Shown in pieces: positions 13,841-39,673 of a DNA stretch of 64,000 nt. The notes under the pieces are model-generated. The model saw only the letters and a program-made list of their open reading frames with translations. It ran no database searches and was not told the DNA's origin. The DNA comes from a virus. A program made the position numbers and the translations under genes. The stretch's first letter is position 1. Every line of letters starts with the position of its first letter. The stretch lies in IMG/VR virus record IMGVR_UViG_3300021961_000037, positions 50,095 to 114,094 of that record; one strand, given 5' to 3'.

Positions 13841-13858
13841 CCGAGTGTGGGGTAGTAA

Positions 13859-14765: not shown

Positions 14766-14773
14766 GGTAAATA

Positions 14774-16066: not shown

Positions 16067-16073
16067 TATCAAC

Positions 16074-16093: not shown

Positions 16094-16121
16094 GACAATA
16101 TAACCGAAAGCGATTGAGGTC

Positions 16122-21920: not shown

Positions 21921-22274
21921 ATGACAGCACCAAACATCGTCGGAGTCACGACCATAACGGGAAAGACGGCAGTCCTTGTCGTCACCACGAGTGCGACGGC
22001 TATTGTGGAGAACACAGCATCAAGCGGCAAAGTGTTCAAGGTGAACGCTTTGTATGTTTCCAACGTCGACGGAACGAATGCAGCAGATGTGAATGTTGAT
22101 ATTTACCGTTCTTCTACGGCATACCACATCGCCAAGACGGTTTCAGTTCCCGCAGATGCAACATTGGATGTGATTGCCAAGTCCATTTACCTTGAGGAAG
22201 GTGATGCCCTGCGCCTCACGGCAAACGCAAACTCCGACCTTGAGGCGGTCTGCTCTTACGAAGAGATTAGTTAG
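21921..22274 (+). CDS. Small beta-rich tail protein (family C, copy 1)
   Basis: A 117-residue protein with strands such as TAVLVVTTSATAIVENTAS, KVFKVNALYVSNVDG and ADVNVDIYRSS, ending EEISYL-like in acidic residues. Four similar-sized proteins follow at 23865, 27876, 32286 and 37496. They share the plan 'response to boundary, then NxDxxxRxxSLxIG, then VxPxxDTLVLDT' but have diverged. The role is unknown. Each copy sits next to a glycine-rich or other adhesin gene, so they may be adaptors or tip proteins. Confidence 0.6.
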   Translation: MTAPNIVGVTTITGKTAVLVVTTSATAIVENTASSGKVFKVNALYVSNVDGTNAADVNVDIYRSSTAYHIAKTVSVPADATLDVIAKSIYLEEGDALRLTANANSDLEAVCSYEEIS

Positions 22275-22276
22275 TC

Positions 22277-23146
22277 ATGGCGCAAATAGGCGGGATTATC
22301 GGTCCGAAGAAATCAGTAAGCATTTCTGAAGCATCCGGTGTTTGGAGCCTGGGTTTTGCCCAAAAAGAGCGAGGCGCTTCAAACTGGCCCACCTTTATTC
22401 CACAAATCAATGTTGAGTATTTAGTTATTGCTGGAGGTGGCAGCGGCGGACCAGGCGGTGGTGGAGAACGTGGTGGTGGAGGCGCTGGTGGTTACAGAAA
22501 TTCGGTTAGCGGTGAATTATCTGGTAGAAACTCGGCTGCGGAATCGCCACTAACTTTTGGTGCTGGAACATACACAGTCACGATTGGTGCTGGTGGTGCT
22601 GGTGGAAGCGGTATTCATAATAACGGAAACAATTCCGTTTTCCATACAATAACCTCCATTGGCGGTGGAAGAGGTGACTCTGGTGGCGGTGGACAAAACG
22701 TTGGAAGCGGTGGCTCAGGAGGAGGTGGTGGCGGTGCGGGGACTGCTGGACAAGGATTCAATGGAGGCACATCAATAAACAACTCTTCTGGCGGTGGTGG
22801 TGGCGGCGCAGGTGGCGCTGGAGGAAATGCCCCATCTGGAGTTGGTGGAGCAGGCTTGGCATCTTCAATAACTGGAACTTCTGTTGGTAGGGCAGGTGGA
22901 GGTGGTGCTGGAAATCCCAACTCTAATGGAGGAGGAAGTGGTGGTGGAAATGGCAATGTCAGCGGAACCGCCAATACAGGCGGAGGCGGAGGCGGCGCTG
23001 GTGGAAGCGGCGGCTCTGGAATCGTTATTGTTAGGTATTTGACCTCGGAAGCATCATGGGCATCGGTGACTGGTGGGACTGTAACTACTTCAGGCTCCTA
23101 CACAGTTCACACATTCACCACCAGCGGCACGCTAAGCATTTCGTAG
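22277..23146 (+). CDS. Glycine-rich tail adhesin (copy 1)
   Basis: A 289-residue protein. After ~50 residues with a VEYLVIAGGGSGG entry strand comes about 180 residues of Gly runs with Ser, Ala and Asn (GGGGGAGGAGG), then GGSGIVIVRYLTSEAS and a closing domain TSGSYTVHTFTTSGTLSIS. Gly-rich runs of this type form polyglycine-II helix bundles in the S16-type receptor-binding tip, so a host-binding role is plausible. Start follows the upstream stop by two bases. Related copies are at 24200, 28218, 29168 (two units) and 32664. Confidence 0.75.
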   Translation: MAQIGGIIGPKKSVSISEASGVWSLGFAQKERGASNWPTFIPQINVEYLVIAGGGSGGPGGGGERGGGGAGGYRNSVSGELSGRNSAAESPLTFGAGTYTVTIGAGGAGGSGIHNNGNNSVFHTITSIGGGRGDSGGGGQNVGSGGSGGGGGGAGTAGQGFNGGTSINNSSGGGGGGAGGAGGNAPSGVGGAGLASSITGTSVGRAGGGGAGNPNSNGGGSGGGNGNVSGTANTGGGGGGAGGSGGSGIVIVRYLTSEASWASVTGGTVTTSGSYTVHTFTTSGTLSIS

Positions 23147-23163
23147 GTTTTAGTACTATGTTC

Positions 23164-23169
23164 TATAAT
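23164..23169 (+). promoter_or_regulatory. -10-like TATAAT in intergenic gap
   Basis: TATAAT lies in the 54-base gap before the gene at 23201, about 30 bases before its start. No convincing -35 hexamer. The gap and the perfect hexamer make a promoter plausible. Confidence 0.4.
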
Positions 23170-23200
23170 GTAAGCACAAACATCACAGGAGAGTAAAGAA

Positions 23201-23569
23201 ATGGCTCATTTTGCCCAAATCAACGCCGACAACGTGGTGACACAGGTAATCGTCGTTTCCAACGATGATTGCGCTGGTGGCGACTATCCGACAAGCGACG
23301 CACCAGGTGCGGCATTCTGCAACAACCTGCTCGGCGGCACGTGGAAACAAACCTCGTATAACGGGAACTTCCGCAAGCGCTATGCAGGAATCGGTTACAC
23401 ATTCAATGCCGACCTTGATGCATTCATTGCCCCACAGCCCTACCCCTCTTGGACGCTGAACGAAGAAACTGCCGACTGGGAAGCACCTGTTGCACGACCA
23501 GCAGAAGGCATGTGGACGTGGAATGAAGCAAATCAGGAGTGGGATGAAGTCGCATCGACAGGGGTGTAA
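23201..23569 (+). CDS. PQPYPSW-type tail protein (copy 1)
   Basis: A 122-residue protein with ribosome site GGAGAG. It has HFAQINADNVVTQVIVVSND, KQTSYNGNFRKRYAGIGYTF, FIAPQPYPSWTLNEETADW and a W-x-x-P-x-x-R-P-x end. This family is frequent in fibre regions of cyanophages and other aquatic phages and is thought to be a virion protein. A shorter copy is at 33599. Confidence 0.7.
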   Translation: MAHFAQINADNVVTQVIVVSNDDCAGGDYPTSDAPGAAFCNNLLGGTWKQTSYNGNFRKRYAGIGYTFNADLDAFIAPQPYPSWTLNEETADWEAPVARPAEGMWTWNEANQEWDEVASTGV

Positions 23570-23572
23570 CCC

Positions 23573-23842
23573 ATGGCGCTTTCGTTCCCTGCTAATCCTT
23601 CGGTAAACGACACATACACGGAGGGAAGCCGTTCCTGGAAATGGAACGGCACAAAGTGGGAACTTGTTATCAGCACACTTGTTGCTGGTTCGGTATCTAC
23701 TGCTGAGATAAACAACGGCGCTGTTACTACGGCAAAACTCGCCGATGGTGCTGTGACCGCAGTCAAACTTGGTCCTGGTATTGGTGGCGGTCTTGACACC
23801 GAGGCTGAGGGTGCGATTTCAATAATGGATATAGGTTCATAA
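23573..23842 (+). CDS. Short fibre protein of the W-x-W-N-G type (copy 1)
   Basis: An 89-residue protein beginning MALSFPANPSVNDTYTEGSR followed by SWKWNGTKWEL, and then a short shaft (NNGAVTTAKLADGAVTAVKL). Similar openings are found at 27495, 31840 and 35158. The W-x-W-N-G-x-x-W motif is a small beta module typical of fibres. Four bases separate it from the preceding gene. Confidence 0.65.
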   Translation: MALSFPANPSVNDTYTEGSRSWKWNGTKWELVISTLVAGSVSTAEINNGAVTTAKLADGAVTAVKLGPGIGGGLDTEAEGAISIMDIGS

Positions 23843-23864
23843 TTAAGAGAGCGGAGTAGATGTT

Positions 23865-24200
23865 ATGGCGATTTCAAGAACAGAAACAAGACTGGGCGGT
23901 CCTACTTCGCTCGGTACCTCTACGACCGCAATTTGTTCTGCCAGTGCAGGCGTAACGGAGGTCATCAAGCAGTTGCTCATCTGCAATACGGATACTGTTG
24001 AGCGCACTTTTAGTCTCGCCATCGGTACTGCGGCGACGGCTACGAACCGTTTCTTTTCCGCCATGCCGATTGGCGCGAATGACACGATTGTTTTGGATAC
24101 TGCGATAGTTCTTGCTCCAACGGAAACACTTGAGGGTTTGGCTGATACGGCAAGCAAGGTCGTTGTTACTGCTCTTGGCTGGGAAAAGACGACTACCTGA
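23865..24200 (+). CDS. Small beta-rich tail protein (family C, copy 2)
   Basis: A 111-residue protein: TETRLGGPTSLGTSTTAIC, EVIKQLLICNTDTVERTF-SLAIG, and DTIVLDTAIVLAPTETLEG. It is clearly homologous to the copy at 27876 (TETRLGGPTQLGTSTTTVC), more distantly to the others. Stop and next start overlap by one base (TGATGG), tying it to the Gly-rich adhesin behind. Confidence 0.65.
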   Translation: MAISRTETRLGGPTSLGTSTTAICSASAGVTEVIKQLLICNTDTVERTFSLAIGTAATATNRFFSAMPIGANDTIVLDTAIVLAPTETLEGLADTASKVVVTALGWEKTTT

Positions 24201-25231
24201 TGGCTCTTTCTGCTGGTCTCGGCGCAGGCGGTAATCGACCTGGTGTTTGCACTAGCAGTACTCGCCCTGCTTCGCCCTATCTCGGGCAGACAATTTTTGA
24301 GACTGACACCAACAAAATGAAAGTTTGGTTAGGTTCAAATTGGTCATCTGGTACTGCACATACCACACCATTCGCAGTTGAATACCTTGTGGTTGCTGGC
24401 GGTGCTGGCGGTGGCTACACCCATGGTGGTGGTGGCGGTGCTGGCGGTTATAGGTCGTCGGTTTCTGGTGAGTCATCTGGTGGAGGTGGTTCAGCAGAAA
24501 CAACATTGGCTTTAGATTTGGGAACATACACCGTCACCGTAGGTGCTGGCGGAGCGGCTGGAACAACCTCCAATGCGACTGGTGTAAATGGTTCTAATTC
24601 GGTTTTTTCCTCTATTACTTCTACTGGTGGTGGTTACGGAAACAGTTACAACAACAGCCCTGCAAATGGAAACTCTGGTGGTTCTGGCGGTGGCGGTGCT
24701 GGTGCCAATACCGCTGGCAACGGTGGTGCAGGAACGTCAAGCCAGGGCTATGCAGGTGGTAACGCAAGTTCTAATGGTACGGCAGGTAACGGCGGCGGTG
24801 GTGGTGGTGCTGGTGCTGTTGGTGCTAATGCTACTGGTGCTATAGGGACGGGTTCTGCTGGTAATGGTGGTGATGGTGTGAGTTCTTCCATCAACGGTAC
24901 GGCTACCACTCGTGCTGGTGGTGGTGGTGGTGGTAGATGGAGTTCAGGAACTTTTGGTTCTGGTGGTTCTGGCGGTGGCGGGCGTGGAGGGTATCCATCG
25001 AATGTTGCAACTGCTGGAACGGCAAATACGGGTAGCGGTGGCGGTGGCGGTGGTGACGGCGATACGCCTGTCGGCGGTGCGGGTGGTTCTGGAATCGTTA
25101 TTATTCGCTATTTGACTGCCGATGCAAGCGGCTACACAGTCACAGGCGGAACAAAAGTGGTTGGTCCAACTGGAGCAACCTCTTACACCGTTCACACATT
25201 CACATCTAGTGGAAGTTTGGTGATTGCATGA
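24200..25231 (+). CDS. Glycine-rich tail adhesin (copy 2)
   Basis: A 343-residue protein. It begins with a 45-residue head (NRPGVCTSSTRPASPYLGQT) also found at 25228, 26105 and 30969, then the Gly-rich tip: VEYLVVAGGAGGG, long Gly/Ser/Ala/Asn runs, GSGIVIIRYLTADAS, and the end SYTVHTFTSSGSLVIA. The head probably attaches to a shared partner while the tip differs between copies. Starts in a one-base overlap with the family C gene. Confidence 0.75.
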   Translation: MALSAGLGAGGNRPGVCTSSTRPASPYLGQTIFETDTNKMKVWLGSNWSSGTAHTTPFAVEYLVVAGGAGGGYTHGGGGGAGGYRSSVSGESSGGGGSAETTLALDLGTYTVTVGAGGAAGTTSNATGVNGSNSVFSSITSTGGGYGNSYNNSPANGNSGGSGGGGAGANTAGNGGAGTSSQGYAGGNASSNGTAGNGGGGGGAGAVGANATGAIGTGSAGNGGDGVSSSINGTATTRAGGGGGGRWSSGTFGSGGSGGGGRGGYPSNVATAGTANTGSGGGGGGDGDTPVGGAGGSGIVIIRYLTADASGYTVTGGTKVVGPTGATSYTVHTFTSSGSLVIA

Positions 25232-25890
25232 CCGTCTCAGCAACAAGCAACGGTCTCCGTCCAGGAGTATGCACCTCAACTAATCGTCCGTCTACGCCGT
25301 TCGACGGAATGGTTATTTATGAGACGGATACGGATTTGGTGAAGGCGTATAACGGTTCGTCATGGGAAACCGTCGGACCTACTACGGCTAGCGGACTTTC
25401 CTATCTCACGGGTGCATCATTTAGCGCGGTGTCGACCGTCAGTTTTGCATCGGGCGTATTCACATCGACGTACCAGAACTATGTAGTGACGCTAAATCTG
25501 ACGGCATCAAGCACAGACCAAGATATTTCAATTCGCGTCAATAACGCTGGTACACCGCGAACCGCCGCAAACTATTACGGTTCCAAAACGACTATCACCG
25601 GCCCGGGTACGTCAACAAATACCGGAACCAATGGCGGAACGTCCCATAACGCTATGCGAACATTAAGCGCATACATAACATTGGGCGCAACTATTCAGGT
25701 TTATTCACCATTGGCAACGGGAACCAATACGTCGTGGACGGTTCAGGCGTTCGGCGCGGAATCAGTTAGCAGCGCAAACATTGTTAGCGGTTGTACGTAC
25801 AACGCACTAGAGGCGCATGATGGTCTAACTTTCGTTGTTGGTGGCACGATTACCGGCAATTACCGCGTGTACGGTATTGCGAACAGTTAG
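25228..25890 (+). CDS. Tail fibre tip protein with GVCTS head
   Basis: A 220-residue protein. The head LRPGVCTSTNRPSTPFDGMVIY-type segment with ETDT and NGSSWE is shared with 24200, 26105 and 30969. The rest is a beta domain (FASGVFTSTYQNYVVTLNLTAS, DISIRVNNAG) ending NYRVYGIANS. The protein at 30969 shows the same plan and end (GSYTIYGYAKV), so the two are paralogues. Likely receptor-binding or tip protein. Overlaps the previous gene by four bases. Confidence 0.65.
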   Translation: MTVSATSNGLRPGVCTSTNRPSTPFDGMVIYETDTDLVKAYNGSSWETVGPTTASGLSYLTGASFSAVSTVSFASGVFTSTYQNYVVTLNLTASSTDQDISIRVNNAGTPRTAANYYGSKTTITGPGTSTNTGTNGGTSHNAMRTLSAYITLGATIQVYSPLATGTNTSWTVQAFGAESVSSANIVSGCTYNALEAHDGLTFVVGGTITGNYRVYGIANS

Positions 25891-25898
25891 GAGTCATC

Positions 25899-26105
25899 AT
25901 GTCTAAACCACTAATCCAAATTGGCGACGAGGTTCGCGAGATGAACGACGCAGAAGTCGCGCAACGGCAACTTGACATTCAGACCGCCGAAGCAGTGAAA
26001 GCAGAAGCAGAAGCGGCAGCCGCTATTCGCCAGTCAGCACTTGCCAAACTTGCCGCTATCGGTCTAACCGACGACGAAATCAACGCAATCGTTGGGGGTG
26101 TCTAA
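25899..26105 (+). CDS. Small helical protein, LTDDEINAI end (copy 1)
   Basis: A 68-residue protein, mostly one Ala/Glu-rich helix, ending AAIGLTDDEINAIVGGV. A paralogue at 31631 ends AALGLTDDEINAIIGGV. Both directly follow a GVCTS-headed tip gene, so the pair moves together. It could be an assembly helper or a tip cap; there is no known function. Its stop overlaps the next ATG. Confidence 0.6.
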   Translation: MSKPLIQIGDEVREMNDAEVAQRQLDIQTAEAVKAEAEAAAAIRQSALAKLAAIGLTDDEINAIVGGV

Positions 26106-27313
26106 TGCCGTTATCTAATGTAATCGGTGCCTCATCCATCCTGAAGCCAGGTGTCTGCACGTCGTCAACTCGCCCTGCCTCCCCGTATGACGGGCAAGTT
26201 ATTTACGAGACAGACACGAACCTGACGCTTGTGTATGAGGGCTCAGAGTGGGCGGTATTGAATCAACAGGTTTTTGGCAGTCGCAACGTGGTTATCAATG
26301 GCGCGATGCAGGTGGCACAACGAGGAACAAGTACGGCGGGCATCACGACAAGCGGCTATTTCACGGCGGATAGGTGGCGAGTGAACTACTCGTCGCTTGG
26401 GACATGGACTCAAAGCGTTGAGAATGATGCGCCGACTGGTTCGGGTCTGCGCCAATCGCTAAAAATGCTTTGTACTACGGCTAATGCCGCACCTGCGGCA
26501 GGTGATGTTCTATTTATGCAGTACCGATTTGAGGGTCAAAATGTGCAACAGTTTCTCAAAGGAACTGCGTCAGCCAAATCTTTCATGCTGACGTTCTGGG
26601 TCAAATCAAATGTGACGGGAACTTTTATTGCTGAGGTTGCCGACGTTGACAACACTCGCCAAGTTTCCAAGTCATACACGATTTCGGCTTCGGAAACTTG
26701 GGAAAAGAAAACCATTGATTTCGGCGCAGACACAACGGGTGTGTTTGATAACGATAATGCTGGTTCGCTGTTTCTGAACTTTCACATGGGCGCAGGAACC
26801 AATTACACATCAGGAACACTAAACACGAATTGGGCAACAACCGTTACCGCAAACCGTGTTATCGGTCAAGTCAATGTCGCCGCCGCCACGAACAATTATT
26901 TCCAAATCACTGGTGTTCAGTTGGAAGCAGGTTCGGTGGCGACACCGTTTGAGTTTGAGGACTACGGAACGACACTTGCCAAATGCCAGCGGTACTACTG
27001 GCGACTTGTTGAAGGTTCAGGAGCCGAAAGAATCTCTGTTGCCGCAGCGCACAGTTCGTCTGATGCGAGAGCCGTAATAACATTTCCAACCACTATGCGA
27101 ACGAGTCCCACCCTAGAAATCGCAACTGGTGCCTACTATTCGTTTGAAAGAAACAATGCAGACGACGACATTACGAGCCTCACAATAGCCCAGGCTTCAA
27201 AAAGCAGTTGTTTGATTTACAACAACACGGAAATATCCTCAACCGCAGGACACGCTGGTAATTTTCGTGCAACCAGCGCATCTGCAAGACTATCGTTTAC
27301 TGCGGAACTGTGA
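26105..27313 (+). CDS. Tail fibre protein with carbohydrate-binding-like domain
   Basis: A 402-residue protein. The head has KPGVCTSSTRPASPYDGQ and then NVVINGAMQVAQRGTS, SGYFTADRWRVNY, followed by a jelly-roll-like region (FMLTFWVKSN, FIAEVADVDNTRQ, FQITGVQLEAGSVATPFEF) and a C-terminal domain starting LAKCQRYYWRLVEGSG. The 'INGAMQVAQRG ... DRWR ... QLEAG.VATPFE' pattern is widespread in phage fibres and resembles carbohydrate-binding modules. Likely a receptor-binding tail fibre. Confidence 0.75.
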   Translation: MPLSNVIGASSILKPGVCTSSTRPASPYDGQVIYETDTNLTLVYEGSEWAVLNQQVFGSRNVVINGAMQVAQRGTSTAGITTSGYFTADRWRVNYSSLGTWTQSVENDAPTGSGLRQSLKMLCTTANAAPAAGDVLFMQYRFEGQNVQQFLKGTASAKSFMLTFWVKSNVTGTFIAEVADVDNTRQVSKSYTISASETWEKKTIDFGADTTGVFDNDNAGSLFLNFHMGAGTNYTSGTLNTNWATTVTANRVIGQVNVAAATNNYFQITGVQLEAGSVATPFEFEDYGTTLAKCQRYYWRLVEGSGAERISVAAAHSSSDARAVITFPTTMRTSPTLEIATGAYYSFERNNADDDITSLTIAQASKSSCLIYNNTEISSTAGHAGNFRATSASARLSFTAEL

Positions 27314-27495
27314 TGAGAAAATATTACAAACAATCCATTATTGGCGGAGTATGGTCAATTTGGTATGAGGAAAACGGTTTTCGTTACTCTTTCACCGAAA
27401 CAAATTCCGAAAACGCCGACTATCAGGCGTACCTTGCGTGGGTTGCTGAAGGCAACACCGCAGAAGAATGGCAACCAGACGGCGGAGGTGAATAA
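27313..27495 (+). CDS. Small hypothetical fibre-region protein
   Basis: A 60-residue protein (MRKYYKQSIIGGVWSIWYEE...), rich in aromatic residues, with an acidic Gly end (PDGGGE). The ATG at 27313 overlaps the previous stop; a GTG three bases earlier is also possible. Its stop overlaps the next ATG. No family recognised, no copy elsewhere in the window. Confidence 0.5.
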   Translation: MRKYYKQSIIGGVWSIWYEENGFRYSFTETNSENADYQAYLAWVAEGNTAEEWQPDGGGE

Positions 27496-27872
27496 TGGCT
27501 ATTGATTTCCCCAACTCCCCCACGAACGGTGACCTGTTCTCTGCTGGTGGAAAGAACTGGCAGTACAACGGAACCGCTTGGGTTCTTCTAGGCATCATCC
27601 CCAACGTAAGACTTCTTGACGACGTAGGTGACGTAACAATCACCTCAGCAACATCTGGGGACTTCCTCAAATGGAACGGCTCTGCATGGGTCAATGACAC
27701 TATTCCGACCATCAACAACTTGAACGACGTGGGTGACGTAACGATTACATCTGCCGCTTCCGGAGAGTTTCTCAAATGGAACGGAAGCGCATGGGTCAAT
27801 GCCGTCGCTTCCACGGATGTCATGACAGACACCAAGAATGCGGCAATAATCACCATGGATATAGGAGCGTAA
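27495..27872 (+). CDS. Short fibre protein of the W-x-W-N-G type (copy 2)
   Basis: A 125-residue protein: MAIDFPNSPTNGDLFSAGGK, WQYNGTAWVLLG, then two copies of the module DDVGDVTITSA(T/A)SG(D/E)FL-KWNGSAWVN. The same module occurs in the giant fibre (near 20400 and 21030) and three times in the fibre at 35338. Ends in DTKNAAIITMDIGA, like the end of copy 1 (AISIMDIGS). Confidence 0.65.
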   Translation: MAIDFPNSPTNGDLFSAGGKNWQYNGTAWVLLGIIPNVRLLDDVGDVTITSATSGDFLKWNGSAWVNDTIPTINNLNDVGDVTITSAASGEFLKWNGSAWVNAVASTDVMTDTKNAAIITMDIGA

Positions 27873-27875
27873 GTT

Positions 27876-28214
27876 ATGGCAGTTGGCGACAGGACAGAGA
27901 CACGGCTTGGCGGACCCACACAGTTGGGTACGTCGACCACGACGGTTTGCACGGCTGCGTCAGGTTACGCAGAAATAATCAAGCAAATCATCATCACGAA
28001 CACTGACACGGTGGACCGCACGTTCAGTCTTGCCATTGGCTCGGCTGCAACGGCGGCAAACAGAATCATTTCTCAGTTGCCCATTGGCGCCAACGACATA
28101 ATGGTCTTGGACACTGCTTTGGTGTTGAATGCCACGGAAACCCTTGAGGGTCTTGCTGATGCTGCGAGCGTCGTGAATGTCACGGCGATTGGCTGGGAAA
28201 AGCAGGTTTCGTAA
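27876..28214 (+). CDS. Small beta-rich tail protein (family C, copy 3)
   Basis: A 112-residue protein: DRTETRLGGPTQLGTSTTTVC, EIIKQIIITNTDTVDRTF-SLAIG, IMVLDTALVLNATETLEGL, ending TAIGWEKQVS. Closest relative is copy 2 at 23865. As there, it stands between a short W-x-W-N-G protein and a glycine-rich adhesin, which shows that this three-gene set was duplicated as a unit. Confidence 0.65.
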   Translation: MAVGDRTETRLGGPTQLGTSTTTVCTAASGYAEIIKQIIITNTDTVDRTFSLAIGSAATAANRIISQLPIGANDIMVLDTALVLNATETLEGLADAASVVNVTAIGWEKQVS

Positions 28215-28217
28215 ACC

Positions 28218-29168
28218 ATGGGCGTTTCCACACCGTATGGCATTCAAGGGCTGAAGAACTATGTAAGGGTCACCACGCCTACGAGCATTGAATATCTGCT
28301 TGTTGGCGGTGGTGGAGCAAGTAGTGCTTCAAATGGTGGTGGCGGAGGTGGTGGCGGTGTTCTGTCTGGAACTACATCTGTTACTGGCGGTTCTGAATAC
28401 ACAATAACTGTTGGTGGTGGCGGGTCTGGTGCTGGTTCAACTGGAGTAAATAATGTCAAAGGCAATAACGGGTCAGACACGGTCGCTTTTTCTTTGACTG
28501 CTGGTGGCGGTGGTGCAGGCAACAGCCTAAACAACAGCGCTGGTGGTTCAAATGGACGAGCAAGCAATGGTTCTGGTGGCGGTGGGTCGGTGACAAACGC
28601 CGGTATAACGGCTGCTCATAATGCTGGTTCTGGAAACGGAACAGGGAAAAACGGAGGCGCTGGGCTTGGCGACATTGCTTCGGGTGGCGGAGGCGGTGCT
28701 GGTGCTGCTGGAACTGCCGGAACATCAACAAATGGCGGTACGGGTGGAAACGGTGTTCAAAATTCAATAAATGGAACAAACTTGTATTGGGCTGGCGGCG
28801 GCGGTGGAACAAGTAATGGAACTGCGGGGAATGGCGGTCTTGGTGGTGGAGGTGGCGGAGCAACCAATACTGGAACACCTGGTCAAGGCGGTGGGTCGGC
28901 ACTTAACTCTGGCGGCAATGGTGGTACTGGTACTGGGAATGATGGCGGAAATGGCGGCGACAATACTGGTGGCGGTGGTGGCGGTTCTGGTTGTCAACAG
29001 AATCAAGTAGCATCGGCAGTCGGTGCAAACGGTGGCTCTGGTGTAGTCATTATTAAATATCCAGATATTTACAGCGCTGCAACCTCTACGACTGGTTCTG
29101 TATCGCTGAGCACGGTAAACGGATACAAAATATATACATTCACCACTAGCGGAAGCATCACCTTCTAA
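28218..29168 (+). CDS. Glycine-rich tail adhesin (copy 3)
   Basis: A 316-residue protein. Short head with TPYGIQGLKNYVRVTTPTS, entry strand IEYLLVGGGGAS, Gly-rich region with Asn/Ser/Ala, a single Cys near SGCQQNQ, then GGSGVVIIKYPDIYS and a closing strand pair (GYKIYTFTTSGSITF). The tip lengths and loop residues differ from the other copies while entry and exit strands are kept, as expected when the Gly-rich loops vary in binding specificity. Confidence 0.75.
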   Translation: MGVSTPYGIQGLKNYVRVTTPTSIEYLLVGGGGASSASNGGGGGGGGVLSGTTSVTGGSEYTITVGGGGSGAGSTGVNNVKGNNGSDTVAFSLTAGGGGAGNSLNNSAGGSNGRASNGSGGGGSVTNAGITAAHNAGSGNGTGKNGGAGLGDIASGGGGGAGAAGTAGTSTNGGTGGNGVQNSINGTNLYWAGGGGGTSNGTAGNGGLGGGGGGATNTGTPGQGGGSALNSGGNGGTGTGNDGGNGGDNTGGGGGGSGCQQNQVASAVGANGGSGVVIIKYPDIYSAATSTTGSVSLSTVNGYKIYTFTTSGSITF

Positions 29169-30940: not shown

Positions 30941-30968
30941 AATCGTTTATCATTGAGGTGAGGTAATC

Positions 30969-31628: not shown

Positions 31629-31630
31629 CC

Positions 31631-31840
31631 ATGAGAACCAACGACAACGGAATTGACCGAGAAATGACAGCAGAAGAAGCCGCAGCACATACTGCTTGGA
31701 TGACAGTAGCGGCACAAGAAGCAGAAGAACTCGCCCAAGCCGAAGCCGCTCGCATCGCCGCCAAGGAATCCGCCAAAGCCAAACTCGCAGCCCTTGGTCT
31801 AACTGATGACGAAATCAACGCAATCATTGGAGGTGTGTGA
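31631..31840 (+). CDS. Small helical protein, LTDDEINAI end (copy 2)
   Basis: A 69-residue helical protein (AEEAAAHTAWMTVAAQEAEE...) ending LAALGLTDDEINAIIGGV. Paralogue of 25899. The conserved end in otherwise diverged helices suggests that the last ~18 residues carry the function, for example binding to the neighbouring tip protein. Confidence 0.6.
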   Translation: MRTNDNGIDREMTAEEAAAHTAWMTVAAQEAEELAQAEAARIAAKESAKAKLAALGLTDDEINAIIGGV

Positions 31841-32028
31841 TGCCTATTGACTTTCCTGGCTCCCCATCCACTGGTGACCACTACTCCTACGACGAGCGCA
31901 CATGGAGATGGGATGGCTCTACATGGCGATTAGTGGTCAGTGGTACCATTGACTACAACATCGACGGGGGTGGAGCCGCCACTGTTTATGGTGGACAAAG
32001 TGTTATTGACGGAGGAGGCGTAGCGTAA
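31840..32028 (+). CDS. Short fibre protein of the W-x-W-N-G type (copy 3)
   Basis: A 62-residue protein, start ATG 31840 with GGAGG at 31829-31833. MPIDFPGSPSTGDHYSYDER, WRWDGSTWRLVV, and a Gly/Asp end (DGGGAATVYGG). The copy at 35158 ends similarly (YIYDGGTA), and both are followed by an Mtd-N-like head. Confidence 0.6.
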   Translation: MPIDFPGSPSTGDHYSYDERTWRWDGSTWRLVVSGTIDYNIDGGGAATVYGGQSVIDGGGVA

Positions 32029-32277
32029 ATGGCTGTAAGAATTCAGTTCAGGCGAGGCACTGCCTCTGAGTGGACCTCTGCCAACCCGACCCTTGCACAG
32101 GGCGAGTTTGCCCTAGAGACGGACACCGGCTACTACAAGGTCGGTGACGGTTCCACGGCATGGACTTCTCTCTCTTATGGGGGGACAACCGGTCAGCCAG
32201 GTACAAACGGAACAAATGGTCTTGATGCGGTATACGATACTGATCAAGCAGTAATAAGTGCACGAGTTTTTAGTTAG
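32029..32277 (+). CDS. Fibre protein with Mtd-N-like head
   Basis: An 82-residue protein: VRIQFRRGTASEWTSANPTL, AQGEFALETDTGYYKVGDGS, TAWTSLSYGG, then a short collagen-like GQPGTNGTNGLD stretch. The first part is the small domain found at the N-terminus of the BPP-1 major tropism determinant and many fibres. The protein is very short, so it may be a free adaptor or the remains of a longer fibre. A full-length relative is at 35338. Confidence 0.65.
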   Translation: MAVRIQFRRGTASEWTSANPTLAQGEFALETDTGYYKVGDGSTAWTSLSYGGTTGQPGTNGTNGLDAVYDTDQAVISARVFS

Positions 32278-32285
32278 GGGAAAAT

Positions 32286-32645
32286 ATGGCTACATTTGCA
32301 AAAACTATTCTGAGTGGTTCAACGGATGGAAAACTCATCAAGGTTGTTCAGACGGCAACTGCTGGAACCACAATCCATACTGGTCCGACTGACACCTCGC
32401 ATTTCCACGAAGTATGGCTGTACGCAGTCAATAGTGATACGACCGATCGCAAGTTGACGATTGAGTGGGGTGGCACTACGTCGCCCGACGATTTAATCGA
32501 GTACACAGTCAAAGCAGAAAACGGTCTATATTTGATTGTTCCTGGATTTATTCTTAAAGGTAATGCCACACCTCTTGTTGTGCGAGCATTCTGCGCTTCG
32601 GCAAACGTGGTGTCTGTGGGCGGATACGTTAACACGATTACCTGA
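32286..32645 (+). CDS. Small beta-rich tail protein (family C, copy 4)
   Basis: A 119-residue protein: AKTILSGSTDGKLIKVVQTA, then a segment with TSHFHEVWLYAVNSDTTDRK-LTIEWG and GLYLIVPGFILKGNATPLVV. The plan matches the other copies, but the sequence has moved further. Followed by a glycine-rich adhesin, as with copies 1, 2 and 3. Confidence 0.6.
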   Translation: MATFAKTILSGSTDGKLIKVVQTATAGTTIHTGPTDTSHFHEVWLYAVNSDTTDRKLTIEWGGTTSPDDLIEYTVKAENGLYLIVPGFILKGNATPLVVRAFCASANVVSVGGYVNTIT

Positions 32646-32663
32646 TTGGGAGGGTGATTAGTT

Positions 32664-33602
32664 TTGCCAGGTCAATCACGGAACACGCAGGGCGGAAAAT
32701 CGCTTGCAACGCAGTTGAGTCCTCGCAATATGCGGACTGGAACTGGTCAAGTGAACGCATTGTGGCAGGGTCAAGGTCCACCGTTTCTTGCTACTGGTGG
32801 TACTGGAACAACGCTGAACGGATTTAGGTATTTGGTATTCACAAGCAGCAGCACTCTTACCGTTACTGACGGTGGGACCGCAGAGGTTCTTGTTGTCGCT
32901 GGTGGCGGCGGTGGCGCATCAAACAACGGTGCTGGTGGTGGTGGAGGCGGTATCCGCACTAGTACTGGGCTTACTTATCAAAGTTTGGAATTCTCGTCCG
33001 GAACCTATTCCGTGACGGTCGGGAGTGGCGGCACAGCACCTGGCGATGGAGTCGTAGGCAATGGAGGCAAGGGCGGTAATAGCAGCATTGTTCACAGCGG
33101 TGGCACTCTTTCTGCAACTGGTGGCGGAGCAGGAGTTTACGTTGGCGATGGTGGTGATGGTGGTTCGGGTGGTGGCAGAAACCAATACAATGGTGGCAGT
33201 CGTGGCGGTTTAGGCAACCAAGGTGGCTACACGCCGTCAGAAGGAAATAATGGTTCTGCTGGCGGCTCACCGAATGGTATCGGTGGCGGAGGTGGTTTCA
33301 ATGCTGCAACCAGTACCGGTCACGGAGCACAAGGTTTGACAGTAAATAACCTTGATTCCAACTTGTCAACGATTCTCGGTTATACGGTTATTTCGTCTGG
33401 TGGTGGTGGTTCTGGTAACTGCAACGCTGGTGGAACAAACGGCGCTGGTGGAACAGGTGCAGGAGGAGGCGGATACGGCAATAATGCTGGTGCTGGTGTT
33501 TCCTATGGTTCTGGCGGAGGTGGAGGAAATAACTGTTTCGGCTCCGTCTATCACGGCGGTGTTGGAAAATCAGGTGTCGTTGTGGTGAGGTTCCCAGCGT
33601 GA
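32664..33602 (+). CDS. Glycine-rich tail adhesin (copy 5)
   Basis: A 312-residue protein with TTG start at 32664, GGAGG ten bases before. A ~75-residue head leads to AEVLVVAGGGGGASN, long Gly/Ser/Asn/Ala runs with some aromatic residues, two Cys (SGNCNAGG, NNCFGS), and a final GVVVVRFPA strand. The C-terminal closing domain of the other copies is absent. Oxygenase genes begin 300 bases further on. Confidence 0.7.
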   Translation: MPGQSRNTQGGKSLATQLSPRNMRTGTGQVNALWQGQGPPFLATGGTGTTLNGFRYLVFTSSSTLTVTDGGTAEVLVVAGGGGGASNNGAGGGGGGIRTSTGLTYQSLEFSSGTYSVTVGSGGTAPGDGVVGNGGKGGNSSIVHSGGTLSATGGGAGVYVGDGGDGGSGGGRNQYNGGSRGGLGNQGGYTPSEGNNGSAGGSPNGIGGGGGFNAATSTGHGAQGLTVNNLDSNLSTILGYTVISSGGGGSGNCNAGGTNGAGGTGAGGGGYGNNAGAGVSYGSGGGGGNNCFGSVYHGGVGKSGVVVVRFPA

Positions 33603-33895
33603 GCAAAATGTATGCCGAACTAGAAGGCTCTGTTGTTGTCAACATCATCGTTGCCGATGAATCATTTGTGAATAGTCAAGAAAATCCAGAACGATTTGTT
33701 GAATACACGGAGCAAAATCCAGCATTCATAGACGGAGATTATGTTGGAGGCTACTTCTATGCGCCACAGCCGTATCCGTCGTGGAGCAGGAACGGCGCTG
33801 GGTTGTGGGTTGCTCCAGTTGAACGTCCTCAGTATGCCGATTACTGGGATGAGGAAAATCAGCAGTGGGTTTTGTTAACTGAACTTCCCGACTAA
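33599..33895 (+). CDS. PQPYPSW-type tail protein (copy 2)
   Basis: A 98-residue protein with GTG start overlapping the previous stop and GAGG eight bases before. Contains VVVNIIVADESFVNSQ, YAPQPYPSWSRNGAGLW and APVERPQYADYWDEENQQW. Shorter paralogue of 23201 lacking the Cys-containing loop. Confidence 0.65.
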   Translation: MSKMYAELEGSVVVNIIVADESFVNSQENPERFVEYTEQNPAFIDGDYVGGYFYAPQPYPSWSRNGAGLWVAPVERPQYADYWDEENQQWVLLTELPD

Positions 33896-33904
33896 CATGT
33901 ATTT

Positions 33905-35049: not shown

Positions 35050-35120
35050 AACTCAATGAGTATTTGCCCCAAATCACCTTAACTGCTAGTTTATTTCAAA
35101 TCAAATACATCTAAATGGTG

Positions 35121-35126
35121 TAAAAT
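35121..35126 (+). promoter_or_regulatory. -10-like TAAAAT in AT-rich gap
   Basis: The 108-base gap 35050-35157 is AT-rich and carries no gene. TAAAAT at 35121-35126 is about 30 bases before the start at 35158. No clear -35. A restart of transcription for the last fibre genes is plausible. Confidence 0.35.
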
Positions 35127-35157
35127 TAGGTAACTTCTGATTTGTTTGGAGACCCAG

Positions 35158-35334
35158 TTGAGTATCGCATTTCCGAGCGCCCCTTCCAACGACCAAGAAT
35201 TCATTGCCGCGGGGAAAGCATGGACATGGAACGGCTCACGGTGGCTCAGGTCTGAATACTCCATAATTGATGGTGGCAATTCGGGAAGTGAACAGAATAC
35301 CGCAAAATATATTTACGACGGTGGGACGGCATAA
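35158..35334 (+). CDS. Short fibre protein of the W-x-W-N-G type (copy 4)
   Basis: A 58-residue protein. TTG at 35158 is preferred to TTG 35146 because GGAG (35148-35151) is six bases upstream and the product then starts M-S-I-A-F-P-S-A-P like its paralogues (MAIDFPNSP, MPIDFPGSP). It contains KAWTWNGSRWLRSE and ends YIYDGGTA. An Mtd-N-headed fibre follows by three bases. Confidence 0.55.
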   Translation: MSIAFPSAPSNDQEFIAAGKAWTWNGSRWLRSEYSIIDGGNSGSEQNTAKYIYDGGTA

Positions 35335-35337
35335 CTT

Positions 35338-37494
35338 ATGACAGTTCGCAGAATACGACTAAGACGAGATACTGCTTCGGCGTGGACCTCTGCTAACCCA
35401 ACCCTTGCGCTTGGTGAAATTGCATGGGAGTCGGACACATCCAAGATAAAAATAGGTGACGGTACTACTGCATGGACTTCCCTTGCCTATTACAATGCCT
35501 CACTCAACAGCATTGGCGATGTTACGATTACTGACGTAGCCAACGGCGACTTTTTGCGTTGGAACGGTTCGGCATGGATTAATGACGCCGTAAACCTGTC
35601 AACGGACACGGTCGGCGATTTTGTCCAATCCCTTGTGGCGGGTACTGGTGTTACCGTTTCCAATAACAGTGGAGAAGCAGCCACACCAACAATTCAAATT
35701 GGGCAAGCCGTCGGCACGACAGACAATGTAACTTTCAATACCGTCACCGCCGATCTCACCGGTGATGTAACCGGAAATGCAGACACCGCAACAACTCTAG
35801 AGACGGCAAGAACAATCTCGCTCGGCGGGGACCTGAGCGGCTCAGCATCGTTTGACGGTTCAGCAGACATAACGATTACCGCCACGATAAGTGCCGACTC
35901 AACAGTCCTTGGCACTGATACAACTGGAGATTACGTTGAGTCACTTGTCGCAGGTACTGGCGTAACTCTCACAAACAACACAGGCGAGGGGGCAACCCCT
36001 ACGGTTGCAATCGGCCAAGCAGTCGAAACCACAAGCGATGTCACATTCAATACCGTCACCGCCGACTTGACGGGCAACGCCGACACTGCGACGACCCTTG
36101 AGACTGCTCGCACCATCTCGCTTGGTGGAGATTTGTCGGGCTCAGCATCATTTGATGGCTCGTCCGACGTCACAATAACTGCAACCATCGGTGCTGACTC
36201 TGTTGCCCTGGGTACCGACACGACTGGAAACTATGTTTCCGATGTAACTGGCGGAACAGGCGTAACGGTAACACATACTCCGGGTGAAGGTTCGAGCCCG
36301 TCAGTTGCCATTGGTCAGGCTGTTGGAACTGCAGATGATGTCACATTCAATACGGTGACTGCAGATTTGACTGGCGATGTCACAGGCAATGCTGACACAG
36401 CAACCACACTTGAAACCGCCAGAACAATTTCTCTCGGTGGTGACCTTTCGGGGTCTGCCTCGTTTAACGGTTCTGCAGATGTCACAATCACGGCGACGAT
36501 TGGCGCTGACTCGGTTGCACTTGGCACTGACACAACTGGCGACTACGTTGGTTCGCTCGTTGCTGGCACGGGTGTCACCTTGTCCAACAACTCTGGTGAG
36601 GGAGCCACACCAACGGTCGCCATCGGTCAGTCGGTAGGAACATCCGATAGCCCAACCTTTGCTGGAGCGACATTGGATGCAGTACAAGTTGGAATCACGG
36701 CAGCGGGAGAGATTGACACCGCCTCGGGCAACTTGACCATTGACTCTGCTGGTGGCACGGTAACCGTTGACGACAATTTGGTTGTAACAGGAGATTTGAC
36801 GGTTTCGGGAACGACCACAACGGTCAACACCGAAACTATCAACCTTGCCGACAATATCATCACCCTAAACAGCAATGAAACTGGTACTCCGAGTCAGAAT
36901 GCCGGTCTTGAAGTAGAGCGTGGAACATCGGCAAATGTTGAGTTGCGCTGGAACGAGACAAGCGATAAATGGGAATTGACAGAAGATGGAAGCACCTATT
37001 ACGACATTGCGACAGAATCCTATGTTGATGCGCAGTCCATTGCTTCACTTGATGATGTCGGCGATGTCACGATTACCTCTGCGGCTTCGGGCGAGTTCCT
37101 CAAGTGGAACGGCTCGGCGTGGGTAAATGATTCAATTCCAACAATCAACACGCTTGATGATGTCGGCGACGTCACGATTACCTCGGCGGCTTCGGGTGAG
37201 TTCCTTAAGTGGAACGGTAGTGCATGGGTAAACGATTCAATTCCGACAATCAACACGCTTGATGACGTCGGCGACGTAACGATTACATCGGCAGCGTCTG
37301 GCGACTTTCTCAAGTGGAATGGTTCTGCGTGGGTCAATGACCCAATTAACCTCGGCACGGACACCACTGGCAACTATATGGTCAATGTTTCTGCCGGAGA
37401 CGGAATAAATGTTTCACACACACAGGGTGAGGGTTCAACAGCAACAATATCCGCAAGGGATACTTTGGTAAGGTTCTACATGGAGGTCATCTGA
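35338..37494 (+). CDS. Repeat tail fibre with Mtd-N-like head (718 residues)
   Basis: Head: RRIRLRRDTASAWTSANPTL, IKIGDGTTAWTSLAYY. Then a shaft of the same ~100-residue repeats as the giant fibre (five (L/S)TDT motifs by my count), the TGTPSQNAGLEVERGTS module, and near the end three nearly identical 35-residue modules (LDDVGDVTITSAASG). It ends soon after HTQGEGSTATISARDTLV. It looks like a shorter mosaic of the giant fibre at 16122 on another head. Probably an alternative side fibre. Confidence 0.8.
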   Translation: MTVRRIRLRRDTASAWTSANPTLALGEIAWESDTSKIKIGDGTTAWTSLAYYNASLNSIGDVTITDVANGDFLRWNGSAWINDAVNLSTDTVGDFVQSLVAGTGVTVSNNSGEAATPTIQIGQAVGTTDNVTFNTVTADLTGDVTGNADTATTLETARTISLGGDLSGSASFDGSADITITATISADSTVLGTDTTGDYVESLVAGTGVTLTNNTGEGATPTVAIGQAVETTSDVTFNTVTADLTGNADTATTLETARTISLGGDLSGSASFDGSSDVTITATIGADSVALGTDTTGNYVSDVTGGTGVTVTHTPGEGSSPSVAIGQAVGTADDVTFNTVTADLTGDVTGNADTATTLETARTISLGGDLSGSASFNGSADVTITATIGADSVALGTDTTGDYVGSLVAGTGVTLSNNSGEGATPTVAIGQSVGTSDSPTFAGATLDAVQVGITAAGEIDTASGNLTIDSAGGTVTVDDNLVVTGDLTVSGTTTTVNTETINLADNIITLNSNETGTPSQNAGLEVERGTSANVELRWNETSDKWELTEDGSTYYDIATESYVDAQSIASLDDVGDVTITSAASGEFLKWNGSAWVNDSIPTINTLDDVGDVTITSAASGEFLKWNGSAWVNDSIPTINTLDDVGDVTITSAASGDFLKWNGSAWVNDPINLGTDTTGNYMVNVSAGDGINVSHTQGEGSTATISARDTLVRFYMEVI
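37051..37365 (+). repeat. Three tandem copies of a 105-bp fibre module
   Basis: Copies start at 37051, 37156 and 37261, each coding DDVGDVTITSAASG(E/D)FL followed by KWNGSAWVND. They are nearly identical in DNA, unlike the older repeats of the shaft, which points to recent duplication. Confidence 0.8.
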
Positions 37495-37495
37495 T

Positions 37496-37858
37496 ATGTC
37501 ATTGACACAAAAACGACTGGTTGGTCCAACCCAACTCACGACGACGACAAGCACGGTCCTATACACCGTGCCGCAAAGCACGACGACCATCGTGAAGCAG
37601 ATTATCCTCTGCAACACGACTGGTTCTGCAGTAACCGTGACGCTGGTTTGCAAGCCGTTGAACGTCGCTCAGGCTTCTTCGCAGAACTTCTTCAACACCC
37701 TGTCGGTTGGGGCAAACGAAACATTGACCTTCCAAACCAACTTGGTTCTGACAAACAACGGAAGCACAGCAAACGCAACGAACAGTGACCAAATCATTGG
37801 TTCCGCAAGTGCAAACACCGCCATCAACATCATCATGAACGGAGTCGAAGAAGCGTAA
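37496..37858 (+). CDS. Small beta-rich tail protein (family C, copy 5)
   Basis: A 120-residue protein: TQKRLVGPTQLTTTTSTVLY, TIVKQIILCNTTGSAVTVTL, VGANETLTFQTNLVLTNNG, ending INIIMNGVEEA. Fits the same plan as copies 2 and 3. Starts one base after the fibre stop and shares a base with the next start (TAATGG). Confidence 0.6.
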   Translation: MSLTQKRLVGPTQLTTTTSTVLYTVPQSTTTIVKQIILCNTTGSAVTVTLVCKPLNVAQASSQNFFNTLSVGANETLTFQTNLVLTNNGSTANATNSDQIIGSASANTAINIIMNGVEEA

Positions 37859-38595
37859 TGGTCGCTAGTTTTGTTCGCCTGAACAACTCGTCACTTTCGA
37901 CAGCAGAGTCAACATCAAGCATTTCTGGCTCGCTGGTGAATTTGGCAAGTTATCTGAACCTTCCAGACCCTGTCTATGGGACTGGAGCGGATGGCGACGC
38001 AACCATTTCGGCTGACACCACGCTGACAAGCGACAAGTTCTACAAGAACCTCACGATTAACGCCAACATAAAACTAAACCCAGGCGGGTACAGAATATTC
38101 GTACAGAATGTTTTGACCCTAAACAGCGGTTCGGAGATTGGCTACACCACTGGATTTTCCACGGCTGGGACTCTCGCTCAAGGCGGAGCAACAAATACGG
38201 CAGTTACGCACAGCCTTGGTGGTTCTAGTGGCGCACAGACGGCGACTGCGCCAACGGCCGCCCTTGGTGGTTCTGCGTACTACCAGCAGCCCCTACAAGC
38301 GATTCGTGGCTGGGCGGTAACAGCAGCCTCAACTACTCCGACGTTCTTGCGTGGTGGTGCTGGCGGCTCGTCTGGCGCTGGTGGCGGAGTTGTTCTTATT
38401 TCGGCTCGCTATATCACCGTTTCTTCGGGTACTGCGTATTTCAAGGCGCCTGGAACTGCTGGTTCCGGTGGCGGTGGTGGCGGGGTCATTCTTGTTGTTT
38501 CCTCTGCGTCGGTACTTAATGCAAGTGTTTCCACTGATGTAACTGGAGGAACTGGCGCATCGGCTGGCACGGTGAACTACATGCAGGTGGCGTGA
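37858..38595 (+). CDS. Tail adhesin with parallel-strand head (paralogue of 38597)
   Basis: A 245-residue protein. The head YGTGADGDATISADTTLTSD, FYKNLTINANIKLNPGGYRI and FVQNVLTLN is a short beta-solenoid-like domain found in many phage tip proteins. Then a Gly-rich part (FLRGGAGGSSGAGGG, APGTAGSGGGGGG) with strands GVVLISARYITVS and GVILVVSSASVLN. Head and plan are shared with the next gene. Confidence 0.7.
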   Translation: MVASFVRLNNSSLSTAESTSSISGSLVNLASYLNLPDPVYGTGADGDATISADTTLTSDKFYKNLTINANIKLNPGGYRIFVQNVLTLNSGSEIGYTTGFSTAGTLAQGGATNTAVTHSLGGSSGAQTATAPTAALGGSAYYQQPLQAIRGWAVTAASTTPTFLRGGAGGSSGAGGGVVLISARYITVSSGTAYFKAPGTAGSGGGGGGVILVVSSASVLNASVSTDVTGGTGASAGTVNYMQVA

Positions 38596-38596
38596 C

Positions 38597-39673
38597 ATGG
38601 CATTTGAGAGGCTTGGAGCAGACAGGAATCCCGTACAGAAGACGGGAACCGACAAATTGTTCGGTGCTGGCAGCGACGGAACAGTAACCATCTCCACGAA
38701 CACGTCGCTTTCACGCGACATGTATTACGCCAACCTCACTGTGAACTCTGGAATCACGCTTTTTACCAACGGATTCAAGATTTTTGTTAGCGGGAACTTG
38801 GTAAACGACGGCACAATAGGAATGCCTACTGGAACAGCACAGACGACTTCGGTCATGGCAGGAACGACCATGACGAGAATTGACGGTAATGCTGGGTATG
38901 TTTCGGGCGATGCCTTGTCGGGAACAATGACGATTGCCGAGGTCCGTGACATTGAAGCGCTTGTCACGGGCGTAATGCAAAAAGGTGCCACGCGAAGGGT
39001 GTGGTGGTCTGGTGCTACTGGAACTGCTGGCACTAGCGGAACCGCAAACCCCGGTGGTGGCGGAAATGCAACTGCTGGTACTGCGGGAACTGGTGGTTCG
39101 GCAGGTCAGGGCGGTGGCTCCGTTGTCGTTCTCGCCAAGTCAATTAGTGGGTCTGGAACATTTGTGAGCGAAGGAACTGCTGGAACTTCGGGAAATCCAG
39201 GAACCGCTGGAAGCAACGCACCGGGAAACCCAGGGCATAACCCCGGCGGGCATGCTGGCGCACATAATCCTGGCGGTCATGCACAAGGACATAACCCCGG
39301 CGGAACTGGCCATAACCCACCCGGTCACTTCCATCACCCCGGTCACCATCAGGCGCCGAATTGCGGAGTCCATGAAGTTTGGGGCTGCTCGCATCATCAC
39401 CCCGGTCACCACAACCCCGCGCACCAACACACAAACCCTGGAAACTCCTTCTCACATCCAGGAAACCCATTCCACTACTCACATCCAGGAAACCCATTCC
39501 ATTACAGTCACCCCGGCAACCCGTTCCACAACCCATCTTATTCTGGTGGCACTGCCAACCCAGGAAATGCAGGAAACCCAGGAAATGCTGGAAGTCTCGT
39601 TGTTTTGACCCGAGGAATCACTACCCATGTCGCAACCTCCAACTTGACATACGTGGAGGACCTAGATGACTAA
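38597..39673 (+). CDS. Histidine-rich X-Pro-Gly tail adhesin
   Basis: A 358-residue protein. Residues 1-140: beta-solenoid-like head (FGAGSDGTVTISTNTSLSRD, YYANLTVNSGITL) as in the gene before. Residues 140-210: Gly/Thr/Ala-rich strand pair with GGGSVVVLAKSISG. Residues 211-311: an extreme region of NPGGH, HNPGG and HPGH motifs, two Cys (256, 264) and three tandem HPGNPFHYS units; I count 25 His in residues 214-311. Residues 312-358: NPGNAG repeats and a final beta strand. The X-P-G triplets look like collagen-type or polyproline/polyglycine helices, the His could bind metal, and the prolines are possible targets of the nearby prolyl-hydroxylase-like enzymes (inference). Confidence 0.75.
   Translation: MAFERLGADRNPVQKTGTDKLFGAGSDGTVTISTNTSLSRDMYYANLTVNSGITLFTNGFKIFVSGNLVNDGTIGMPTGTAQTTSVMAGTTMTRIDGNAGYVSGDALSGTMTIAEVRDIEALVTGVMQKGATRRVWWSGATGTAGTSGTANPGGGGNATAGTAGTGGSAGQGGGSVVVLAKSISGSGTFVSEGTAGTSGNPGTAGSNAPGNPGHNPGGHAGAHNPGGHAQGHNPGGTGHNPPGHFHHPGHHQAPNCGVHEVWGCSHHHPGHHNPAHQHTNPGNSFSHPGNPFHYSHPGNPFHYSHPGNPFHNPSYSGGTANPGNAGNPGNAGSLVVLTRGITTHVATSNLTYVEDLDD
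39455..39529 (+). repeat. 27-bp tandem repeat coding HPGNPFHYS
   Basis: Two full and one partial copy (starts 39455, 39482, 39509). They encode the His/Pro/aromatic end of the adhesin. Differences between copies are few and mostly silent. Confidence 0.75.

What the first reader, a model, noticed from the sequence alone, without database searches (positions are those of the whole stretch)
21921..39673. An array of recurring fibre/adhesin modules arranged as duplicated gene cassettes
About 27 genes are made from a few families: short W-x-W-N-G proteins (23573, 27495, 31840, 35158), ~115-residue beta proteins (21921, 23865, 27876, 32286, 37496), Gly-rich adhesins (22277, 24200, 28218, 29168, 32664), GVCTS-headed tips (24200, 25228, 26105, 30969), LTDDEINAI proteins (25899, 31631), Mtd-N heads (32029, 35338) and PQPYPSW proteins (23201, 33599). 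The order 'short W protein, beta protein, Gly-rich adhesin' occurs at 23573-25231 and 27495-29168, with variants elsewhere. This looks like stepwise cassette duplication that gives one phage many alternative or simultaneous host-binding tips. I do not know a described system of this size.
Basis: partly seen in the sequence, partly recalled or inferred. Interest (0 to 1): 0.85.

Follow-up and report, generated by a model that had tools for sequence, protein, structure and literature searches.

The report
Mosaic array of phage receptor-binding cassettes
This uncultured aquatic virus of bacteria carries about five interchangeable sets of attachment-tip genes in a row; the sets appear to have been collected from other phages rather than copied within this one, and close relatives keep the mounting parts while swapping the tips that probably touch the host.

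Summary
The span holds 28 tightly packed same-strand genes, 24 of them from recurring families. Of the five "beta proteins", 23865, 27876 and 37496 are one family, 32286 joins it by profile comparison, and 21921 is unrelated by sequence. The beta protein is predicted to be a small jelly roll. Two tips (25228, 30969) share a galectin/ConA-like domain; five proteins are Pfam Gly_rich_2. Across 47 non-redundant contigs the order is non-random: stem, then beta, then tip, and tip types have their own small downstream partners. A sister phage with about 95% identical baseplate DNA has a different cassette set, and conserved heads carry different tips. Five further pairs of relatives show similar swapping. 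Best reading: a host-recognition cluster (a known kind) enlarged by lateral collection of ready-made cassettes, probably displayed together on the tail. No reverse transcriptase or serine recombinase was found in the 114-kb record. What seems new is the cassette grammar and the beta jelly roll as shared connector; simultaneous display is inferred.

The parts
16122..21917 (+). long repeat fibre (1931 aa), probable stem; split in two in the sister phage by an inserted beta-661-69-W block
   Evidence: PHROG tail fibre hits
21921..22274 (+). betaA connector-like protein, own family
   Evidence: 95% identical in k388; not related to beta by hhalign
22277..23146 (+). Gly_rich_2 adhesin tip
   Evidence: PF21722 E 2e-17; only 50% identical in k388 next to 95-98% neighbours
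23201..23569 (+). PQP small partner of Gly-rich tips
   Evidence: phrog_7759; GLY->PQP adjacency 26 vs 9.1
23573..23842 (+). W-head protein
   Evidence: fused to the tip gene in k388
23865..24200 (+). beta jelly-roll connector; closest relative is in another phage (L005)
24200..25231 (+). GVCTS head + Gly_rich_2 tip
25228..25890 (+). GVCTS head + lectin-like (C0) tip
25899..26105 (+). LTDD small partner
   Evidence: C0->LTDD 11 vs 1.1; alignment
26105..27313 (+). GVCTS head + carbohydrate-binding-type fibre tip
   Evidence: phrog_4492 E 1e-55; cyanophage 'carbohydrate binding domain' homologues
27310..27495 (+). s61 small partner of the CBM tip
   Evidence: CBM->s61 7 vs 1.0
27495..27872 (+). 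W head + two fibre repeats (mini-stem)
27876..28214 (+). beta jelly-roll connector (modelled)
   Evidence: pLDDT 89.5
28218..29168 (+). Gly_rich_2 tip
   Evidence: 92% in k388
29168..30940 (+). double Gly_rich_2 tip; first domain diverged, second conserved in k388
30969..31628 (+). GVCTS head + galectin/ConA-like tip (modelled)
   Evidence: head about 90% identical but unrelated tip in k388
31631..31840 (+). LTDD small partner; absent in k388
31837..32028 (+). W head
32029..32277 (+). Mtd-N head protein
   Evidence: PF18454 E 8e-17
32286..32645 (+). betaC connector, distant member of the beta family
32664..33602 (+). Gly_rich_2 tip
33599..33895 (+). PQP small partner
35146..35334 (+). W head
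35338..37494 (+). Mtd-N head + second long repeat fibre
   Evidence: PF18454 E 6e-12; 64% to 16122
37496..37858 (+). beta connector, sister of L059
37858..39673 (+). two homologous terminal proteins (37858, 38597); same pair after beta in L059

Best explanation
The span is the host-recognition cluster of a contractile-tailed phage, built from about five exchangeable receptor-binding cassettes in one operon-like row. Each cassette reads: a stem (long fibre, or short W or Mtd-N head), a roughly 112-aa jelly-roll connector (beta), then one to several tips, many followed by a small partner specific to that tip type. Tip types are Gly-rich, lectin-like C0 and CBM-type. Proposed working: heads dock on the stem or connector, the tip binds surface sugars or proteins, and the partner folds or trimerises its tip as Tfa-like chaperones do. 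The phage enlarged its tip repertoire by taking whole cassettes from a pool shared among aquatic phages and by exchanging tips behind conserved heads. Shown: the families, the ordering, tip swapping between relatives, and closer kinship to other phages' cassettes. Inferred: tail location, connector and chaperone roles, simultaneous display.
For: Myovirus context: sheath and baseplate wedge. Families. Ordering on 47 non-redundant contigs (none of these reached in 500 shuffles): FIB->BETA 34 vs 8.8, W->BETA 17 vs 4.6, BETA->GLY 40 vs 16.7, C0->LTDD 11 vs 1.1, CBM->s61 7 vs 1.0, GLY->PQP 26 vs 9.1. Gain, loss and swaps: sister k388 is 95% identical from 1919 to 17497, then rearranged; W, beta and heads 89-98% with replaced or diverged tips; pairs L008/L016, L017/L043, L033/L051, L026/L029, L029/L037. 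34 of 57 pairs with heads >=80% identical carry tips with no detectable similarity under SEG masking. Origin: nearest relatives lie in other phages. Folds.
Against: No virion data. In podovirus-like relatives the module follows the major head protein, so a head position is possible. Jelly-roll and ConA-like matches are at Z 7-9, near background for beta folds. The partners have no recognisable chaperone homology. For several proteins (Gly tip of 24200, W 35146, Mtd-N of 35338, PQP 33599, LTDD 25899) the nearest outside relative is only marginally closer than the in-window copy.
Confidence: 0.72

Rival explanations
1. Stepwise tandem duplication inside this phage lineage produced the copies.
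For: Same W-beta-Gly order twice; beta 23865/27876 are 72% identical.
Against: 23865 groups with L005 at 100/96 support, and 27876 is nearest to k388 and L020; head 30969 is 90% to other phages vs 65% in-window; tip 25228 is 43% vs 24%. k388 lacks most of the 23865-27495 block. An ancient duplication in an ancestor of several phages is not excluded.
Confidence: 0.1
2. The products are head fibres or capsid decorations that help the particle stick to cells, not tail tips.
For: In L003, L059, L072 and L051 the module lies just after head genes. The beta fold resembles the HFTV1 turret and KHP40 cement proteins, Z 8.3 each. Some PHROG hits are labelled head decoration.
Against: In the window it follows the baseplate wedge and long fibre; phrog_1084-type genes, which also match tail-fibre-assembly phrog_3304, lie upstream of the fibre in both window and L072; Mtd_N and Gly-rich tips are tail-associated in studied phages (own knowledge; PMC9608196).
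Confidence: 0.15
3. The tips are alternatives, with only one expressed or assembled at a time through a switch (inversion, retroelement or frameshift).
For: Many similar heads could compete for one docking site.
Against: No reverse transcriptase or serine recombinase in the 114-kb record; no strong inverted-repeat pair flanking a segment; overlapping reading frames and no promoter or terminator excess inside. The record may be incomplete.
Confidence: 0.15

Closest known systems
Host recognition cluster (HRC) of pelagimyophages and cyanomyophages (PMC7029224); metaviromic islands (PMC3909814)
   Same: Hypervariable block in the structural region with fibres, ConA and Mtd domains, carbohydrate-binding proteins and 2OG oxygenases; differs between otherwise similar phages.
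   Different: In the passages I read, no repeated stem-connector-tip-partner cassette is defined. Here the order is quantified and cassettes are traced to other phages.
Synechococcus phage S-H34 fibre row (MT162467)
   Same: Consecutive fibre genes with six W heads and six proteins matching the CBM tip profile.
   Different: In the 31-kb stretch searched there is no beta connector (one marginal betaA hit only) and none of the LTDD, PQP or s61 partners.
Branched tail-spike complexes (Ackermannviridae, phiKp24; PMC11414711)
   Same: Many receptor-binding proteins sharing conserved N-terminal docking parts with variable C-terminal tips, jelly-roll (gp10-like) linkers, and recombination that swaps tips.
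   Different: There the linkers are domains of the spikes; here the jelly roll is a separate small gene and tips are Gly-rich or lectin-like.
Myocyanophage Pam3 gp24/gp25 and phage S16 gp38 (PMC9608196)
   Same: Gly-rich tip domain at the fibre end, with a dedicated chaperone gene beside the fibre in Pam3.
   Different: Single fibre; no sequence match between PQP or LTDD and solved structures.
Alteromonas phages A5/V22 shared host-recognition module (PMC10579305)
   Same: Fibre plus cognate chaperone shared between unrelated phage families.
   Different: As described in the abstract, one fibre-chaperone module, not a row of several.

Membership tests
Host recognition cluster / metaviromic island | fibre and adhesin genes clustered in the structural region | tested here: met
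Host recognition cluster / metaviromic island | region variable between phages otherwise near identical | tested here: met
   window vs k388, 95% flank then rearranged
Host recognition cluster / metaviromic island | T4-like (Tevenvirinae) backbone, as in the HRC paper | tested here: inconclusive
   sheath nearest Gordonia, Brevibacterium and Arthrobacter phages at 32-34%; terminase phrog_979
Gly-rich fibre tip (Gly_rich_2 PF21722) | match above Pfam gathering score | tested here: met
   five proteins, 53-133 bits vs cut-off 24.3
S16 gp38 / Pam3 gp24 | sequence similarity to solved fibre tips | tested here: inconclusive
   29168 has no PDB sequence match at E 0.01; fold not modelled
Tfa/gp25-type fibre chaperone (LTDD, PQP, s61) | dedicated gene next to its tip | tested here: met
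Tfa/gp25-type fibre chaperone (LTDD, PQP, s61) | homology to known chaperones | tested here: inconclusive
   no Pfam, PHROG or PDB match that names such a function
Branched spike complex (gp10/XD linkers) | gp10-like jelly-roll linker between receptor-binding proteins | tested here: inconclusive
   beta is a predicted jelly roll but matches many unrelated ones at similar Z
Mtd / diversity-generating retroelement | Mtd_N head | tested here: met
   32029, 35338
Mtd / diversity-generating retroelement | reverse transcriptase in the genome | tested here: not met
   no RVT_1 in the 114-kb record, which may be incomplete; controls ring
Invertible fibre system (Mu/P1) | serine invertase and inverted repeats flanking fibre ends | tested here: not met
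   no PF00239 match; no strong repeat pair

The most novel reading that the evidence does not exclude
The roughly 112-aa beta jelly roll is a standard connector shared across unrelated aquatic phages. It would let any stem be joined to any tip-partner pair, so that cassettes can be strung together and one particle shows eight or more different tips at once on a branched fibre.
Probability: 0.3. Interest if true: 0.72.

Novelty: new variant of a known kind. Interest (0 to 1): 0.5.

Why it matters
If right, it gives a readable grammar for annotating host-recognition genes that are now 'hypothetical' in aquatic phages. It pairs each tip type with a specific small partner, which can be tested by co-expression. 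It also points to lateral collection of ready-made cassettes, rather than duplication, as the way such phages change what they bind.

Tried and rejected
Nucleotide relatives in named phages: none. Named-phage relatives of beta 23865 or C0 tip 30969 by tblastn: none. Retroelement or invertase switching: no machinery found. Internal promoters or terminators: no excess over shuffles. The baseplate protein 11919 found only one close relative in viral contigs, so the close comparison rests on one sister phage. Foldseek on the C0 tip gave no match below E 0.001; the ConA-like reading rests on the VIA second look only. Literature searches for tandem fibre arrays in cyanophages gave nothing specific.
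Full report
OBSERVATION. The window is the last 64 kb of a 114-kb virus record. It encodes a tail sheath and baseplate wedge; portal, head protease and terminase genes lie upstream, so it is a contractile-tailed phage. Sheath relatives in named phages are only 32-34% identical (Gordonia, Brevibacterium and Arthrobacter phages in the listed rows, plus a few cyanophages), and no named phage matches the fibre region at the DNA level. The host is unknown.

The span 21921-39673 holds 28 genes on one strand, 98.7% coding. Ten of 27 junctions overlap and 22 are within 10 nt. Internal promoter- and terminator-like sites are no commoner than in shuffles. All-against-all comparison with low-complexity masking and composition correction supports the W, GVCTS, LTDD, Mtd-N and PQP families and the beta trio 23865/27876/37496. 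The Gly-rich proteins all pass the Pfam Gly_rich_2 cut-off. Protein 32286 belongs distantly to the beta family (hhalign 97.4%); 21921 does not (7.5%) but takes the same position in its cassette. The C-terminal parts of 25228 and 30969 are one family.

GRAMMAR. I scanned viral contigs with beta 27876 (80 loci), built iterated profiles for each family, and reduced the loci to 47 non-redundant ones. Neighbour pairs were compared with 500 within-span shuffles: fibre to beta 34 vs 8.8; W to beta 17 vs 4.6; beta to Gly-rich 40 vs 16.7; C0 tip to LTDD 11 vs 1.1; CBM tip to s61 7 vs 1.0; Gly-rich to PQP 26 vs 9.1. None of these was reached in any shuffle. So a cassette reads: stem (fibre, W or Mtd-N), beta, then tips, with tip types followed by their own small gene. 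Small relatives such as L016, L040, L051 and L072 have one such unit; the window has five beta-type positions, the most in the set.

GAIN, LOSS AND SWAPPING. Contig IMGVR_UViG_3300044681_000388 (k388; L082 and L002) is 95% identical to the window from 1919 to 17497. After that, the long fibre gene is interrupted in k388 by a block carrying a beta protein, a 661-aa and a 69-aa protein and a W-headed fibre; genes 23865 and 25228-27310 and the LTDD gene 31631 have no counterpart in place; and W 23573 is fused to a GVCTS/Gly-rich tip. In shared genes the W parts are 89-98%, beta 95% and head 30969 about 90% identical, while tip 30969 is unrelated, tip 22277 is 50%, and the first Gly-rich domain of 29168 is strongly diverged while the parts on either side are conserved. 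Five other pairs of relatives show the tip set replaced or diverged between better-conserved stem/beta and downstream genes. In L029/L037 one C0 tip (40%) and its LTDD partner (45%) differ together while the next genes are 98-100% identical; this is a single example, but it fits cognate pairing. Over all GVCTS-headed proteins, 57 pairs have heads at least 80% identical, and 34 of these have tips with no detectable similarity (SEG masking was on for tips, so similarity of Gly-rich pairs may be missed).

ORIGIN. Most window copies have nearer relatives in other phages than in the window. Beta 23865 pairs with L005 (100/96 support); 27876 is nearest to k388 and L020, 37496 to L059. The row therefore looks like separate cassettes joined by recombination: block 23573-27495 resembles L005; 27495-32277 resembles k388, L020, L006 and L010; 35146-42070 resembles L059, including the halogenase gene. 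Repeats shared by stems (16122, 27495, 35338) and near-identical heads are plausible recombination sites; this is inference. Ancient duplication in a common ancestor is not excluded, and for several short or Gly-rich proteins the margin between in-window and outside relatives is small.

MECHANISM. The beta model (pLDDT 89.5) is an eight-strand jelly roll; its matches include phage turret, cement and baseplate proteins but also unrelated nucleoplasmins at the same Z. Among predicted viral structures it matches many unnamed phage proteins and some labelled virion structural or tail-fibre-like, including ones of S-TIM5 and P-SSM2. I read it as a connector because of its fixed place between stem and tips. 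The 30969 tip (residues 55-219) matches galectins, legume lectins and GH32 C-terminal domains (Z 7-9), so sugar binding is likely. The small partners have no known homologue of function; a chaperone role is proposed by analogy with Pam3 gp24/gp25, where the fibre with a Gly-rich tip is helped to fold and trimerise by its neighbouring gene product (PMC9608196). Simultaneous display is favoured by the operon-like layout and the lack of a reverse transcriptase or serine recombinase, but is not shown. In podovirus-like relatives the module lies after the head genes, so a head location remains a minority possibility.

COMPARISON. Large variable fibre islands are known: metaviromic islands (PMC3909814) and host recognition clusters (PMC7029224). 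Phages with many receptor-binding proteins are known (phiKp24 with 14, cited in PMC11414711). Sharing of a fibre plus chaperone between phage families is known (PMC10579305). Cultured cyanophage S-H34 has a row of W-headed fibre genes with CBM tips. The finding is therefore a new variant of a known kind. The parts I did not find described are the cassette grammar, the tip-specific partners and the shared jelly-roll connector; the paper library covers only open-licence papers, so this absence is weak evidence.

Noticed in passing
window 40607-42070: Tryptophan halogenase-like gene (phrog_2928, E 1e-101) downstream of the array; 31-37% identical to cyanophage copies such as S-H38 and P-SSM2. L059 carries the same gene after the same beta/37858/38597 block.
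   Followed up: partly
window 33905-35049 and 40000-40602: Three 2OG-Fe(II) oxygenase genes in and beside the array. 33905 also matches phrog_274, labelled 'DNA endonuclease V', which conflicts with its Pfam 2OG match.
   Followed up: partly
window 38597-39673: Terminal protein with a His-rich region of repeated HNPGG and HPGNPF motifs, possibly metal binding.
   Followed up: no
L010 17374-18051: Two betaA copies fused in one open reading frame (225 aa), where the related contig L012 has a single 117-aa copy: a local duplication of a connector.
   Followed up: no
L087 17719-18852 (G000 upstream of the window): Phosphoadenosine phosphosulfate reductase gene (phrog_2302, E 4e-78) in the same phage record.
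   Followed up: no
L051 10274-11074 and L072 12310-13089, next to the tip genes: ORFs whose starts look like glycosyltransferases flank the fibre cassette in small relatives; read by eye only.
   Followed up: no
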